NCBI GenBank assembly: GCA_028866575.1
Contig: JAGWHU010000006.1
Location: 1-64,000 of the forward strand
Direction: 5' to 3'
Length of the DNA: 64,000 nucleotides
Source: Candidatus Micrarchaeota archaeon
Lineage (GTDB): Archaea > Micrarchaeota > Micrarchaeia > Micrarchaeales > Micrarchaeaceae
Shown: in pieces, positions 21,701 to 25,230 of the stretch
Position numbering within the stretch: position 1 is the first letter of the stretch
Layout of the letters: every line of letters starts with the position of its first letter
Position numbers and translations under genes: made by a program
Notes under the pieces: generated by a model
The model's input: the letters and a program-made list of their open reading frames with translations, nothing else
What the model was told of the DNA's origin: nothing
Database searches by the model: none

Positions 21701-22339
21701 TCAGAAGCTGGACTGCACAACGTGCTGCTTGGTGCTGTCCATCTTTGCCTCGAAGTCCGATACCGAGTACTTGAATTCCTCGTTGCTGCCTATGGTGCCC
21801 CTTGCCTTGAGGACCTCCCTTGCGAGGATATAGTACACGAAAGCCAGGGATCTCCTTCCCCTGTTGTTCACAGGTATGATTAGGTCTATGAACTTCGTGG
21901 AGTTGTCGGTGTCGCTCAGCGCGAGTATCGGCACGTTGACCTTGCTGGCCTCCTTTATCGCCTGCTTCTCGTTGCGCGAGTCGCTTATGATTATCAGCAT
22001 CGGCTCCATGAAGCCCTCCCTGTTCGGGTTGGTGAATATCCCAGGGGTTACCCTACCCTTTATGAACTTCGCCTCTATTATCTCAGCGAACTTCTGGGCC
22101 GCGACTATCGCGTATATCCTTGACGCCGTGACAACTATCTTCCTAGGCTCGTAAGAGGCTATCATCTTCGAGGCCATCTTTATCCTCATGTCTATCGTCT
22201 TCAGGTCCAGCAGGTAGAGCCCGTCCTCCCTCACCTTGTATATGAACCTCTTCATGCCAGGGCTCCTGGTCTTCGTCGCTATGTGCACTCCTGCCTCTAG
22301 ATAGTCGTTCTGGTTTGCCAATAGTTCTTCATCAGTCAT
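21701..22339 (-). CDS. rps2: Ribosomal protein uS2
   Basis: A 212-residue small-subunit ribosomal protein at the head-body junction of the 30S subunit. Family phrases are clear: HIATKTRSPGMKRFIYKVREDGLYLLDL, RVTPGIFTNPNREGFMEP and ALSDTDNSTKFIDLIIPVNNRGRRSLA. ATG 22339 is chosen because AAGGTG lies eight bases upstream and the family begins there; the frame extends 29 codons further, but that stretch overlaps a tRNA fragment. In many archaea rps2 closes the rpoD-rpl13-rps9-rpoN operon. Here it is separated from rpoN by the split tRNA-Pro island, and it probably uses a promoter inside the island, such as GTATTTAGG at 22411-22420. Confidence 0.95.
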   Translation of the reverse strand: MTDEELLANQNDYLEAGVHIATKTRSPGMKRFIYKVREDGLYLLDLKTIDMRIKMASKMIASYEPRKIVVTASRIYAIVAAQKFAEIIEAKFIKGRVTPGIFTNPNREGFMEPMLIIISDSRNEKQAIKEASKVNVPILALSDTDNSTKFIDLIIPVNNRGRRSLAFVYYILAREVLKARGTIGSNEEFKYSVSDFEAKMDSTKQHVVQSSF

Positions 22340-22351
22340 CTGAAACACCTT

Positions 22352-22401
22352 CGGGGCCGCCGAGACTTCCAACAATATGTTTTTGAACTCGGGTCGCTGG
22401 C
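22352..22401 (-). tRNA. 3' half of a split tRNA-Pro(GGG) gene, with T-loop insertion
   Basis: Minus-strand reading: GCCAG (anticodon-stem 3' side, 22397-22401), 4-nt variable loop, T-stem CCGAG (22388-22392), a 23-nt T-loop, T-stem CTCGG (22360-22364), acceptor CGGCCCC (22353-22359) and discriminator G. It pairs perfectly with the 5' half at 24972-25012: acceptor 7/7 bp, anticodon stem 5/5 bp. The normal 7-nt T-loop starts TTCAA and ends GT with 16 extra nt between, an intron-sized insertion at a non-canonical place. It ends 12 nt before the rps2 start. Whether it is expressed or trans-spliced is unknown. Confidence 0.75.
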
Positions 22402-22410
22402 ACCCATGCC
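22399..22410 (-). repeat. Left attachment-like direct repeat of the island
   Basis: Minus-strand GGCATGGGTGCC matches the right-end GGCATGGGGTGC (24973-24983 region), apart from three versus four G. It is the anticodon-loop sequence of the interrupted tRNA-Pro, repeated at both island ends in the same orientation, as expected for att sites left by site-specific integration. Confidence 0.55.
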
Positions 22411-22492
22411 TAAATACGTTGCGCAATTATGTTATGCCACATAATAGCATTAGTTTAACAAATGTTATTGTTATAAAAGTATATAAAGATGT

Positions 22493-22566
22493 GGGGCTGT
22501 GGCGTAGCTTGGTAGCGTACTAGCATGGGGTGCTAGTGGTCGTGAGTTCGAATCTCACCAGCCCCG
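22493..22566 (+). tRNA. tRNA-Pro(GGG), complete
   Basis: A 74-nt cloverleaf: acceptor GGGGCTG/CAGCCCC, D-arm with GCTTGGTA, anticodon stem CTAGC/GCTAG around loop ATGGGGT (anticodon GGG), T-arm GTGAG-TTCGAAT-CTCAC and discriminator G. TATA-like TTATAAAAG and TATATAAAG lie just upstream. It is inside the island, on the opposite strand to the split tRNA-Pro with the same anticodon, and differs from it throughout the stems. It could replace the interrupted gene. Confidence 0.92.
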
Positions 22567-22841
22567 AATTATATAGGAGATATAGATAAGCGAGAAAAAT
22601 TAGAGTTCAAATAAAAATTATTTTATAGGTGGCATAGTTTATACCTAATTTCCGATATAAAGTGTTTGTCCCTACTGGGAAAAACTAGAGTCCCTGGATG
22701 TGCTTCCTGATCCTTGATTATTTGCTGATTGTTGGCGTTTATTTGACCTATTTTGAACGTTCTGCTCGAGGGTTAGATGACCTTTATCTAGGCAGTTGAA
22801 CGTTCTGAATGTGAGGTCGGGACGAAATTGATGAAAGTATA
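22567..22841. other. Gene-free stretch with a 12-bp direct repeat
   Basis: No protein-coding frame is supported here. TTGAACGTTCTG occurs twice, at 22753-22764 and 22796-22807, 43 bp apart. Each copy contains the palindrome GAACGTTC, so they could be paired operator or replication-protein sites of the island. Otherwise AT-rich and unassigned. Confidence 0.5.
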
Positions 22842-23213
22842 TTACTTTTTAACATTATCCACAATCTCCTTTATCTTGGGATCTACAGTTTCTTCTTCCT
22901 TATTCCTTTCAACAGCTATACGTGGAATTCCGAAAAGAACGTAATTCCAATTATTTATTTGCTGTATGTTGGTCAAGAATGGAGTCAAATATTCTGCTTT
23001 TACGAAGTGATAATGAGCTTCGCCGTTCCACCCTTTCCATGCAAGATTTGTAGGTGCACCTCTCGGTGTAACATTTCCCACTCCTAGATGTTTGTTTAAC
23101 TCGACTTCGCTTAGCTCTGATCCTAAAGCAGAAGTTCTGATAATATCTTCACTAGACCTAAGCAGCTTTGTAGTACCTGCAAATTCCTTTCGTTCCTTGC
23201 CCTTTGTAGACAT
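22842..23213 (-). CDS. Hypothetical island protein
   Basis: A 123-residue protein (ATG 23213; a TTG at 23240 would be too close to the TATA element). Contains the segments GAPTNLAWKGWNGEAHYHF and NNWNYVLFGIPRIAVERNKEEE, and a lysine-rich end. The aromatic-rich middle suggests a compact beta domain. I do not recognise a family. It diverges from the acetyltransferase operon over a shared TATA region (23241-23251), and its base composition is AT-rich like the rest of the island. Confidence 0.6.
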   Translation of the reverse strand: MSTKGKERKEFAGTTKLLRSSEDIIRTSALGSELSEVELNKHLGVGNVTPRGAPTNLAWKGWNGEAHYHFVKAEYLTPFLTNIQQINNWNYVLFGIPRIAVERNKEEETVDPKIKEIVDNVKK

Positions 23214-23240
23214 AGTATCTATTAATTGTTTATTTTTCAA

Positions 23241-23251
23241 GATATATATAA
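23241..23251 (+). promoter_or_regulatory. Bidirectional TATA region of the island genes
   Basis: GATATATATAA is centred 27 nt before the acetyltransferase ATG at 23273, giving a leaderless start. It is nearly symmetric and can also serve the divergent gene starting at 23213. Confidence 0.5.
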
Positions 23252-23272
23252 TGTTAGGAAAAAATTGATTTT

Positions 23273-23782
23273 ATGCAAAAGACCAAAGAAAGTATAAAAA
23301 GGGCTAGTCTACACGATCTGGACACCTTATTAGATATATATGAAACTTGTAACGATTGGCTATTAAAGAAGGGAATGAATCATTGGCAAGGTGTATATAG
23401 TAGAGAGGTTGTGTCTCAAAGAATAAAAGAAATGGACGTGTACATCATATACGAAAAGGATTTACCAGTAGGAACAATTTCCTTAAGCAACAAACCCTCA
23501 TCATTTTATAGAGAAACTGATATGGCTTTCTTTAAAGATAAGAATGCACCAGCGATATATCTGAGAGGTTTAGCAATATTGCCAGGTCATCAAGGTAAAG
23601 GATTAGCATCTAAACTTATGGCTTTTGCAGAGCAGAAGGTGAAAGAAAAAGGTATCCCATACATAAGATTTGATAGCGTAGGGTTTGAATATTTTGATAA
23701 ATTCAATGCATCCTATTTAAGAAAAGGATACCATGTTGTAGGAAAACGAGGCAATAGTCTTTTCTTTGAGAAGATTTTATAA
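23273..23782 (+). CDS. GNAT-family N-acetyltransferase (first of two in the island)
   Basis: A 169-residue acetyl-CoA-dependent acetyltransferase. The acetyl-CoA pyrophosphate-binding loop is visible in LPGHQGKGLASKLM (Q-x-x-G-x-G/A type), preceded by the beta-4 strand IYLRGLAI. The N-terminal half has a substrate region with the phrase ETCNDWLLKKGMNHW. It resembles bacterial GNATs of unknown small-molecule or peptide substrate, and may be of bacterial origin. First gene of a three-gene operon (gaps of 12 and 34 nt); leaderless start. Markedly AT-rich compared with the flanking chromosome. Confidence 0.85.
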   Translation: MQKTKESIKRASLHDLDTLLDIYETCNDWLLKKGMNHWQGVYSREVVSQRIKEMDVYIIYEKDLPVGTISLSNKPSSFYRETDMAFFKDKNAPAIYLRGLAILPGHQGKGLASKLMAFAEQKVKEKGIPYIRFDSVGFEYFDKFNASYLRKGYHVVGKRGNSLFFEKIL

Positions 23783-23794
23783 TAAGGTGAAACT

Positions 23795-24064
23795 ATGAGT
23801 CTAAATGAAATTAAAACCCTGGTTCATAAACATCTTGATAATTTGATAACTCAACACCATTTTCCTTCTGAATCAAGAAATAAACTGATGAAAATTAGAA
23901 ACGATTTAGATAGAGCAAACAGCAATGACCAGTTAAATAATATAAGAGATGAACTTGCTGAATTATCCGAGGATAGAGAAAGAAAATTGACAAGAGAGCA
24001 AAGAGGAGAAGTATATTCACCTGTATGTTGGATAGAAGATTATTTGAAAGAAAAAAGTACTTGA
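23795..24064 (+). CDS. Small hypothetical protein between the acetyltransferases
   Basis: An 89-residue charged helical protein with an AAGGTGAAACT ribosome binding region before the ATG. Heptad-like segments (KLMKIRNDLDRANSNDQLNNI) suggest a short coiled coil; the C-terminus carries one Cys and a Trp (SPVCWIEDYLKEK). Its place between two GNAT genes in one operon makes it a candidate substrate, inhibitor or partner, by context only. Confidence 0.6.
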   Translation: MSLNEIKTLVHKHLDNLITQHHFPSESRNKLMKIRNDLDRANSNDQLNNIRDELAELSEDRERKLTREQRGEVYSPVCWIEDYLKEKST

Positions 24065-24098
24065 CTTATAAGTTTTTGTATTTGAAATTGGTGAATTA

Positions 24099-24557
24099 AT
24101 GAAAATGAGGAAAGCAGGTAATAAGGATATTGTCGTCCTTGCCAAACTTTTACATAACTATGATGTTTTTGAGCATGATCTAGATAAAAGAGTAGAAGTT
24201 ACATCGGAAAGGGAATACAAAAAGTACCTTAGTAAGACCTTCAGAGATAACTCAACTACTTACATTATTGCAGAAGACGGTTCAAAACCTGTTGGATTTA
24301 TCAGCTATGTGATATGGAAACAGGGTAAAATGTCGGCTGGTGCTATACAAGACACACTCATAATTGATGGTCATCGCGGGAAAGGGATAGGGAAGGCGCT
24401 CGTTCGTTATGTAATCAATAAGATGAAAAAAGCAAAATGTGAATATGTTAAAAGCGGTGTTAGAGTAAAGAATAAACGCGCTCAGAAGTTTTGGAAGAAA
24501 CAAGGATTTAAGGTCAATTTTAACCAGGTAGACTATTCTATGCGGAAGGAGCTATGA
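24099..24557 (+). CDS. GNAT-family N-acetyltransferase (second of two in the island)
   Basis: A 152-residue acetyltransferase with the acetyl-CoA motif DGHRGKGIGKALV and a following helix ending in KSGVRVKNKRAQKFWKKQGF, the family's typical C-terminal signature (N/K-x-x-A-x-x-F-Y/W-x-x-x-G-F). A GGTGA ribosome binding site lies seven bases before ATG 24099. It is not a close duplicate of the first GNAT, so the pair is not a recent tandem duplication. Substrate unknown; could modify antibiotics, polyamines or a small protein. Confidence 0.85.
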   Translation: MKMRKAGNKDIVVLAKLLHNYDVFEHDLDKRVEVTSEREYKKYLSKTFRDNSTTYIIAEDGSKPVGFISYVIWKQGKMSAGAIQDTLIIDGHRGKGIGKALVRYVINKMKKAKCEYVKSGVRVKNKRAQKFWKKQGFKVNFNQVDYSMRKEL

Positions 24558-24637
24558 TAAAACGAAATAACATTTACAAAAGTCTTATCATACGTTTTCG
24601 TACCGCAGCTATCAACAGCTTACTGGTTTATATTGCT

Positions 24638-24900
24638 CTATCTTAAATCACCACAAAACAACCTGCTAAGCCTTTTAATCGCTGTAATCTTTGCTTCTGC
24701 TGTACAGCTCAAATCTTTGTTATTATACATGAAGTTCTCAAATGTGGGTTTCTTTGTTTCAGATAAAAGAAAACGTTTCAACTGTTTACCATTTCTATCG
24801 TTTCCTACATAATCGGGTTTACAGTTTTGGAATTATTGGGGTACCATTTATTTTCAGAGCCTTAATGTCGGCATACATAATAAATACGATAGTAGCAGCA
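24638..24900 (-). pseudogene. Possible decayed coding remnant near the right end of the island
   Basis: On the minus strand a protein-like frame ends at 24638 and reads about 58 residues including VGNDRNGKQLKRFLLSETKKP and FCGDLR. A second frame just upstream (ATG near 24878) reads MYADIKALKINGTPIIPKL and then stops. They can be joined only by a frameshift near 24825. Composition is coding-like but there is no family match; it could be what is left of an element gene such as a recombinase. Confidence 0.25.
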
Positions 24901-24936
24901 CTTATAACGAAATATCTTACAAAAATCAGCATACAC

Positions 24937-24982
24937 GCATGGGGCATAAGTGGTTGCCTAACTGTCATAAAGCACCCCATGC
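24937..24982. repeat. Inverted repeat at the right end of the island
   Basis: GCATGGGG (24937-24944) and CCCCATGC (24975-24982) are perfect inverted repeats around a 30-nt loop. The right arm is the anticodon-loop region of the tRNA-Pro 5' half. The island thus carries an extra inverted copy of its own crossover sequence. Confidence 0.6.
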
Positions 24983-25012
24983 CAGAAGCCTACCAGGCTA
25001 GCCTACGGCCCC
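24972..25012 (-). tRNA. 5' half of a split tRNA-Pro(GGG) gene
   Basis: Minus-strand reading: acceptor GGGGCCG (25006-25012), TA, D-arm GGCTAGCCTGGTAGGCT, anticodon stem CTGGC, loop ATGGGGT with anticodon GGG, then GC. After this the sequence no longer fits a tRNA (GCTTT in place of GCCAG). The missing part is at 22352-22401 on the same strand and completes all stems. It begins 17 nt after the rpoN stop. The original gene must have stood between rpoN and rps2. Confidence 0.8.
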
Positions 25013-25029
25013 ATCAATTCAATAATGCA

Positions 25030-25230
25030 TCACTTCCTTCCGAATTGTATGAACTCGTCTATGAGCTCCACGTTGCTTATGAACATCCTCCTGCAGCAAT
25101 ACCTCTTGAATCCTAGCTCGTCAAGCACCTTGTCCGCCTGCTCGTGCTCCTTGTTGACTCTCTTGTCGTATTCCTCCCACTTGTCAGCCACTACAGCACC
25201 GCAGCTAAAACATCTTACAGGCATCATCAT
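25030..25230 (-). CDS. rpoN: DNA-directed RNA polymerase subunit N (Rpb10)
   Basis: A 66-residue archaeal RNA polymerase subunit homologous to eukaryotic Rpb10, which helps bind the RpoD-RpoL assembly platform. The zinc ligands are all present: Cys7 and Cys10 in RCFSCG and the adjacent Cys45-Cys46 in YCCRRM. There are three consecutive ATG codons at the start; any may be used. It follows rps9 by 4 nt in the standard archaeal order. In most archaea rpoK, eno and rps2 follow; here the tRNA-Pro 5' half and the island follow instead. Confidence 0.95.
   Translation of the reverse strand: MMMPVRCFSCGAVVADKWEEYDKRVNKEHEQADKVLDELGFKRYCCRRMFISNVELIDEFIQFGRK

What the first reader, a model, noticed from the sequence alone, without database searches (positions are those of the whole stretch)
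22352..25012. A tRNA-Pro(GGG) gene split at its anticodon loop by a 2.6-kb island
The minus strand holds a 5' tRNA half at 24972-25012 and a 3' half at 22352-22401. Joined, they give a tRNA with a perfect 7-bp acceptor stem (GGGGCCG/CGGCCCC), a perfect anticodon stem (CTGGC/GCCAG) and a perfect T-stem (CCGAG/CTCGG). The break is in the anticodon loop, where GGCATGGG(G)TGC is repeated in the same orientation at both ends. The halves lie 17 nt from rpoN and 12 nt from rps2, so the gene stood inside that operon. This is either an integrated element at an anticodon-loop attachment site, or a split tRNA gene maintained by trans-splicing. Intact stems in both halves argue against long decay. I know of no described case with this arrangement, though I cannot search.
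Basis: partly seen in the sequence, partly recalled or inferred. Interest (0 to 1): 0.9.

Follow-up and report, generated by a model that had tools for sequence, protein, structure and literature searches.

The report
Split proline-tRNA gene, replaced by invader's copy
In a tiny archaeon (a Micrarchaeota genome bin) a piece of foreign DNA sits in the middle of a proline-tRNA gene that is intact in its relatives, and instead of rebuilding the broken gene, as such insertions normally do, the insert carries a complete bacterial-looking gene for the same tRNA.

Summary
The minus strand holds two intact halves of a tRNA-Pro(GGG) gene split in its anticodon loop, with an 11/12-bp direct repeat at the break. 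In close relatives (Micrarchaeota) the same gene is uninterrupted between rpoN and rps2, with short T-loop introns; 48 distinct intact genes were read.

The 2.56-kb AT-rich insert carries, on the opposite strand (22493-22566), a complete intronless tRNA-Pro(GGG). It is the only complete GGG gene found in the assembly (97.5% complete). Its body is bacterial/phage-type (32-nt exact identity with a Legionella tRNA-Pro), while its acceptor stem matches the host's tRNA-Pro(CGG).

Most likely this is an anticodon-loop integration that did not restore the target in cis and instead supplies the tRNA from a gene of its own; the native halves are relics. Two other tRNA-associated islands in the same genome do restore their target. 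Trans-splicing is poorly supported. No recombinase lies in the island, and function is inferred. New variant of a known kind.

The parts
24972..25012 (-). 5' half of the native tRNA-Pro(GGG): acceptor 5' strand, D arm, anticodon stem 5' strand and whole 7-nt loop ATGGGGT
   Evidence: 40/41 identical to the intact gene of three relatives
22352..22401 (-). 3' half of the native tRNA-Pro(GGG): anticodon stem 3' strand, variable loop, T arm with a 16-nt insert in the T loop, acceptor 3' strand, discriminator G
   Evidence: the same place carries introns in nearly all of 48 intact genes of relatives
24972..24983 (-). rpoN-side copy of the direct repeat, GGCATGGGGTGC (anticodon-loop core)
22400..22410 (-). 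rps2-side copy of the direct repeat, GGCATGGGTGC (one G shorter)
22411..24971 (.). AT-rich island between the repeats, 2,561 bp, with no recognisable integrase or transposase
   Evidence: the genome's PF00589 integrases lie elsewhere
22493..22566 (+). complete intronless tRNA-Pro(GGG), bacterial/phage-type body with a host-like acceptor stem and G73; the only complete GGG gene found in the assembly
22842..23240 (-). 132-aa ORF of unknown function, with paralogues in this genome and in the congener
23273..23782 (+). 169-aa GNAT-fold acetyltransferase
   Evidence: PF00583, E 9e-10
23795..24064 (+). 89-aa ORF, homologues (38-40% identity) in two Micrarchaeota of another family
24099..24557 (+). 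152-aa GNAT-fold acetyltransferase
   Evidence: PF00583, E 8e-19; 47-48% identical homologue in another Micrarchaeota
24560..24971 (+). degraded, frameshifted membrane-protein-like reading frame that runs into the rpoN-side junction
   Evidence: no family match above cut-off
25030..25230 (-). rpoN, flanking operon gene
   Evidence: PF01194, E 1e-28
21701..22339 (-). rps2, flanking operon gene
   Evidence: PF00318, E 3e-21

Best explanation
A foreign DNA segment was inserted by site-specific recombination, most likely by a tyrosine recombinase acting in trans or since lost, into the anticodon loop of the native tRNA-Pro(GGG) gene, which stood between rpoN and rps2. Unlike ordinary tRNA-gene islands it did not bring a piece that rebuilds the target. 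It carries a complete tRNA-Pro(GGG) gene of its own, of bacterial/phage ancestry in its body and host-like in its acceptor end, in the opposite orientation, and this gene now supplies the CCC/CCU-reading tRNA. The native halves are young relics. Shown: the uninterrupted gene in relatives, the split with a direct repeat of the loop, the foreign composition, the complete gene inside, and no other complete GGG gene found. Inferred: the recombinase, that the tRNA arrived with the insert, and that it is expressed, charged and sufficient.
For: Intact gene at the same place in relatives. The break is exactly in the loop, with an 11/12-bp direct repeat, which matches the anticodon-loop crossover of known integrases (PMC8371274). 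G+C drops from about 52% to about 35%. Complete 60-bit tRNA-Pro(GGG) inside. No other complete GGG gene in RF00005, DNA and pattern searches of the genome, while tRNA-Pro CGG and TGG are present. The island tRNA body matches bacterial/phage tRNA-Pro(GGG) at up to 40/43 positions against 25-30/43 for archaeal ones, and its acceptor stem plus N73 matches host tRNA-Pro(CGG) at 14/14 against 7/14 for bacterial ones. All complete tRNA-Pro genes of this genome share G73. Tyrosine integrases occur next to other tRNA genes of the genome, and two of these sites (Leu-TAG, Asp) show ordinary restored islands with displaced fragments.
Against: The island holds no integrase, and its rpoN-side end lies within a degraded reading frame rather than an evident element end. 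The two repeats differ by one G. No second genome with this island was found. The Rfam search misses tRNAs with odd introns (about 35 of an expected 46 or so were recognised), so a second GGG gene is not strictly excluded. No expression data.
Confidence: 0.68

Rival explanations
1. Two separate events: the bacterial-type tRNA-Pro gene was acquired or duplicated first and made the native gene dispensable; later DNA entered the native gene by illegitimate or transposition-like recombination, and the present island is a remnant of several insertions and deletions.
For: No recombinase in the island; the rpoN-side junction cuts a degraded reading frame; recognisable cargo is related to genes of other Micrarchaeota, not to viruses; in the congener G001 only a decayed 3' end of the native gene remains beside rps2.
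Against: Break at the loop with an 11/12-bp direct repeat is the signature of site-specific integration; the complete tRNA lies within 100 bp of one junction, an unlikely place by chance.
Confidence: 0.2
2. The halves are a functional split tRNA gene: both are transcribed and joined by the tRNA splicing endonuclease, in trans or across a 2.6-kb intron.
For: Both halves are sequence-intact; the lineage tolerates many odd tRNA introns; the ARMAN-2 endonuclease accepts relaxed motifs (PMC12397907); leader/trailer pairing is slightly better than shuffles (-20.2 against -14.1 kcal/mol, 4.4% of shuffles as good).
Against: A complete tRNA-Pro(GGG) exists in the island; no junction register gives a full bulge-helix-bulge (best 8 of 13 pairs; the scan separates poorly from the genome's own introns); the longest leader/trailer helix is about 7 bp, against a 14-bp G/C-rich stem in Aeropyrum (PMC3218864); an exact direct repeat is not expected from splicing.
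Confidence: 0.07
3. Assembly or binning artefact: the island was joined to the operon wrongly.
For: The genome is a fragmented bin (53 contigs) and no reads could be examined.
Against: The repeat is 11/12 bp, shorter than usual assembly k-mers; contig C6 is 75 kb with host genes on both sides; the congener G001 also has a damaged native gene at this place.
Confidence: 0.05

Closest known systems
Genomic islands integrated in tRNA genes (Islander type, anticodon-loop site)
   Same: Target is a tRNA gene, crossover at the 7-nt anticodon loop, direct repeat at both ends, foreign composition; such islands occur in this genome.
   Different: The target is not restored in cis; both halves are left apart and a different, complete gene of the same anticodon lies inside in the opposite orientation; no integrase. 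Islander's rules reject islands without an integrase or with opposite orientation (PMC4383910).
Archaeal integrative elements of the SSV1, pTN3 and pT26-2 type
   Same: Anticodon-loop or tRNA-gene attachment sites used by tyrosine recombinases (PMC8371274).
   Different: Those restore an uninterrupted tRNA gene and carry an integrase gene; here neither holds.
Split, trans-spliced tRNA genes of Nanoarchaeum, Caldivirga and Desulfurococcales
   Same: Two halves, join near position 37/38, nearby in the genome; a mobile-element origin was proposed for the recent ones (PMC3218864).
   Different: No full bulge-helix-bulge or long complementary leader/trailer found; a complete gene for the same tRNA is present.
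Tycheposons
   Same: Islands with a tRNA gene at their border (described in PMC10872708).
   Different: No tyrosine recombinase gene and far smaller; in the tycheposons described there the tRNA stands at the border of the island, not split around it.

Membership tests
Genomic island integrated in a tRNA gene | target tRNA gene uninterrupted in relatives lacking the island | tested here: met
Genomic island integrated in a tRNA gene | direct repeat of the target at both ends | tested here: met
   11/12 bp, one G different
Genomic island integrated in a tRNA gene | integrase gene in the island | tested here: not met
Genomic island integrated in a tRNA gene | target tRNA gene restored in cis by the island | tested here: not met
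   neither junction rebuilds the gene; compare the restored Leu and Asp islands
Split (trans-spliced) tRNA gene | bulge-helix-bulge at the junction | tested here: inconclusive
   no full motif, best 8 of 13 pairs, but the control introns scored only 8-11
Split (trans-spliced) tRNA gene | long complementary leader and trailer | tested here: not met
   longest helix about 7 bp; 4.4% of shuffles as good
Split (trans-spliced) tRNA gene | no other gene for the same anticodon | tested here: not met
   complete tRNA-Pro(GGG) at 22493-22566
Split (trans-spliced) tRNA gene | joined mature RNA detected | not testable with these tools
   no RNA data

The most novel reading that the evidence does not exclude
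A split tRNA gene caught at birth: an element recently inserted into the anticodon loop, both intact halves are still expressed and joined by the relaxed splicing endonuclease, and the island's complete tRNA is a back-up. This would be direct evidence that split tRNA genes arise from mobile-element insertion.
Probability: 0.06. Interest if true: 0.9.

Novelty: new variant of a known kind. Interest (0 to 1): 0.57.

Why it matters
A review of archaeal integrases states that integration into tRNA genes restores an uninterrupted copy. Here a probably essential archaeal tRNA gene was broken and its role apparently taken over by a bacterial-type gene carried by the insert. [quoted passage not shown] It also gives a natural test of whether such insertions can give rise to split tRNA genes.

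Tried and rejected
Trans-splicing or a giant intron: no full bulge-helix-bulge register and marginal pairing. The first duplex energies were computed on letters with T; the U-converted repeat is the one used.

A second, degenerate copy of the island tRNA at 24928-24954: 20/27 identities to the anticodon arm and 0 of 400 shuffles as good, but the same bases read SIHAWGISG in a degraded reading frame. I recalled a PAP2-phosphatase-like motif, which Pfam and NCBIfam did not support. Left open.

Viral origin of the cargo: no relatives in IMG/VR for four ORFs, none in phage records for the 132-aa ORF, and at most remote GNAT matches in plasmids.

A like event in other relatives: among 30 loci only this genome and perhaps congener G001 are broken here; G036, G010 and G033 lack the tRNA between rpoN and rps2 without an island.

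Shared island in G001: its 160 nt upstream of the remnant do not match this island, and rpoN was not found in that incomplete bin. Upstream TATA-like motifs did not discriminate.

Full report
What was checked. On the minus strand the 5' half (25012-24972) holds the acceptor 5' strand, D arm, anticodon stem and the whole loop; the 3' half (22401-22352) holds the rest. GGCATGGGGTGC at 24972-24983 is repeated, one G shorter, at 22400-22410. ARAGORN and Rfam do not report the split gene but report a complete tRNA-Pro(GGG) on the plus strand at 22493-22566, inside the island.

The ancestral state. Relatives of the window's genome (G000) were searched with the neighbouring rps2 protein. In most of the 30 loci read, rpoN and rps2 are separated by about 120-240 nt that hold an intact tRNA-Pro(GGG). 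The window's 5' half is 40/41 identical to three of them, against a background best of at most 20/41. A pattern scan of one genome per species found 45 such stretches, nearly all titled Micrarchaeota (four are titled Marsarchaeota), so the window is from this lineage. The scan's pattern also allowed the island tRNA's own form, and it returned only members of this lineage. From all loci 48 distinct intact genes were parsed. Nearly all carry one or two short inserts in the T loop; two have none (TTCAAAT). The window's 3' half carries a 16-nt insert at the same place (between TTCAAA and TCTCGG), so the joined gene was a normal intron-bearing member of this family.

The island. Between the repeats lie 2,561 bp of about 35% G+C in a 52% neighbourhood. 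The ORFs are two GNAT acetyltransferases, an 89-aa protein with homologues in two Micrarchaeota of another family, a 132-aa protein with paralogues in this genome and its congener, and a degraded frame against the rpoN-side junction. No integrase or transposase family was found, and the only phage-family matches are to acetyltransferases; viral-contig scans with four ORFs were empty. The genome does have tyrosine integrases elsewhere, most of them next to tRNA genes. For tRNA-Leu(TAG) an exact 31-nt 3' fragment lies 3 kb downstream, and for tRNA-Asp a 59-nt fragment (92%) lies 0.8 kb downstream. Those are ordinary islands with a restored target and serve as internal controls.

The island's tRNA. 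It is complete, intronless, with all stems paired, and scores 60 bits. It is the only complete GGG gene found in G000: the Rfam search of the genome gave 38 hits, among them one tRNA-Pro each for CGG, TGG and GGG; a DNA search with the island gene found only itself and the native 5' half; and the exact loop core occurs only in these two. Limits: the Rfam search misses or misreads intron-rich tRNAs, and the bin is 97.5% complete. Its body (positions 8-48) matches a Legionella plasmid-borne tRNA-Pro(GGG) and an IMG/VR phage tRNA at 40/43 each, and a Pseudomonas phage tRNA at 36/43, with 32 consecutive identical bases to Legionella; archaeal tRNA-Pro reach 25-30/43. The bacterial examples are best database hits, so the comparison is biased in their favour, but the contrast is large. 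The acceptor stem and N73 match the host's tRNA-Pro(CGG) at 14/14 and the bacterial ones at 7/14. All complete tRNA-Pro genes of G000 have G73, whereas 48 of 48 relatives' GGG genes have A73; the congener's CGG gene has A73. The acceptor end therefore looks fitted to this host. This is an inference; charging was not tested.

Mechanism. The seven bases of the anticodon loop with the flanking stem form the classical overlap and core of tyrosine-recombinase sites (PMC8371274), and the break with its direct repeat lies exactly there. The simplest course is integration at this loop by a recombinase acting in trans or since lost. The reviewed rule is that integration restores an uninterrupted tRNA gene (PMC8371274; PMC4383910). 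Here it does not: the halves stay apart and a different gene of the same anticodon stands about 80 bp inside one junction, in the other orientation. Archaeal decoding normally needs a GGG tRNA for CCC and CCU (established knowledge), so the island gene is the likely supplier. Whether it came with the insert or before it is not known.

Trans-splicing. Trailer and leader pair slightly better than shuffled letters (-20.2 against a mean of -14.1 kcal/mol; 4.4% as good), with at most about 7 contiguous pairs. Aeropyrum's split tRNA has a canonical motif followed by a 14-bp G/C-rich stem (PMC3218864). No register at the junction gives a full bulge-helix-bulge, though the scan scored the genome's own introns only 8-11 of 13, so it is weak evidence. 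The ARMAN-2 endonuclease, from an organism of this phylum, takes relaxed motifs (PMC12397907), so the view is not excluded.

Time. Both native halves are still intact, which suggests a young insertion or selection. In the congener G001 only a decayed 3' end remains beside rps2, sharing G73 and a TGGAA end of the T-loop insert with the window; the sequence upstream does not match this island and the contig ends there. Whether both species descend from one disruption is open.

Verdict. A real and unusual case: a non-restoring insertion in a tRNA gene with an in-built heterologous replacement. A literature search for such a replacement gave nothing, but the library is partial. New variant of a known kind.

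Noticed in passing
L002-L030, L148-L192 (intervals between rpoN and rps2): tRNA-Pro(GGG) of this Micrarchaeota lineage carries one or two very short inserts in the T arm, on one or both sides of TTCAAA, in nearly all of 48 distinct genes; two have none. A ready series for intron gain and loss at a T-loop position.
   Followed up: partly
window 22352 and 22566; L081, L082 (G000): All tRNA-Pro sequences of this genome have G at the discriminator position 73, including the split native gene, whereas 48 of 48 relatives' GGG genes have A. A species-level switch of a ProRS identity position.
   Followed up: partly
L136 12425-12499 (G000 C5:62426) and C5:61586-61644, C5:46229-46250; L139 2803-2890 and G000 C3:51955-51985: Ordinary tRNA-gene islands in the same genome: tRNA-Asp with displaced fragments at 0.8 and 16 kb, tRNA-Leu(TAG) with an exact 31-nt fragment 3 kb downstream, each next to a tyrosine integrase gene or a remnant of one.
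   Followed up: partly
L020 (G036), L028 (G033), L030 (G010): Three relatives lack the tRNA between rpoN and rps2 altogether, without an island; where their GGG gene is was not determined.
   Followed up: no
window 22842-23240; L134 4345-4893; L135 557-1222: A 132-aa protein family without Pfam, NCBIfam or PHROG match, with several diverged copies in this genus.
   Followed up: partly
window 24928-24954: 27 nt resembling the island tRNA's anticodon arm (20/27, 0 of 400 shuffles as good), same orientation, 17 nt from the native 5' half; the same bases are part of a degraded reading frame.
   Followed up: partly
window 23273-24557: Two GNAT acetyltransferase genes flank an 89-aa gene; GNAT proteins include toxins that acetylate aminoacyl-tRNA, but no antitoxin family was recognised.
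   Followed up: no
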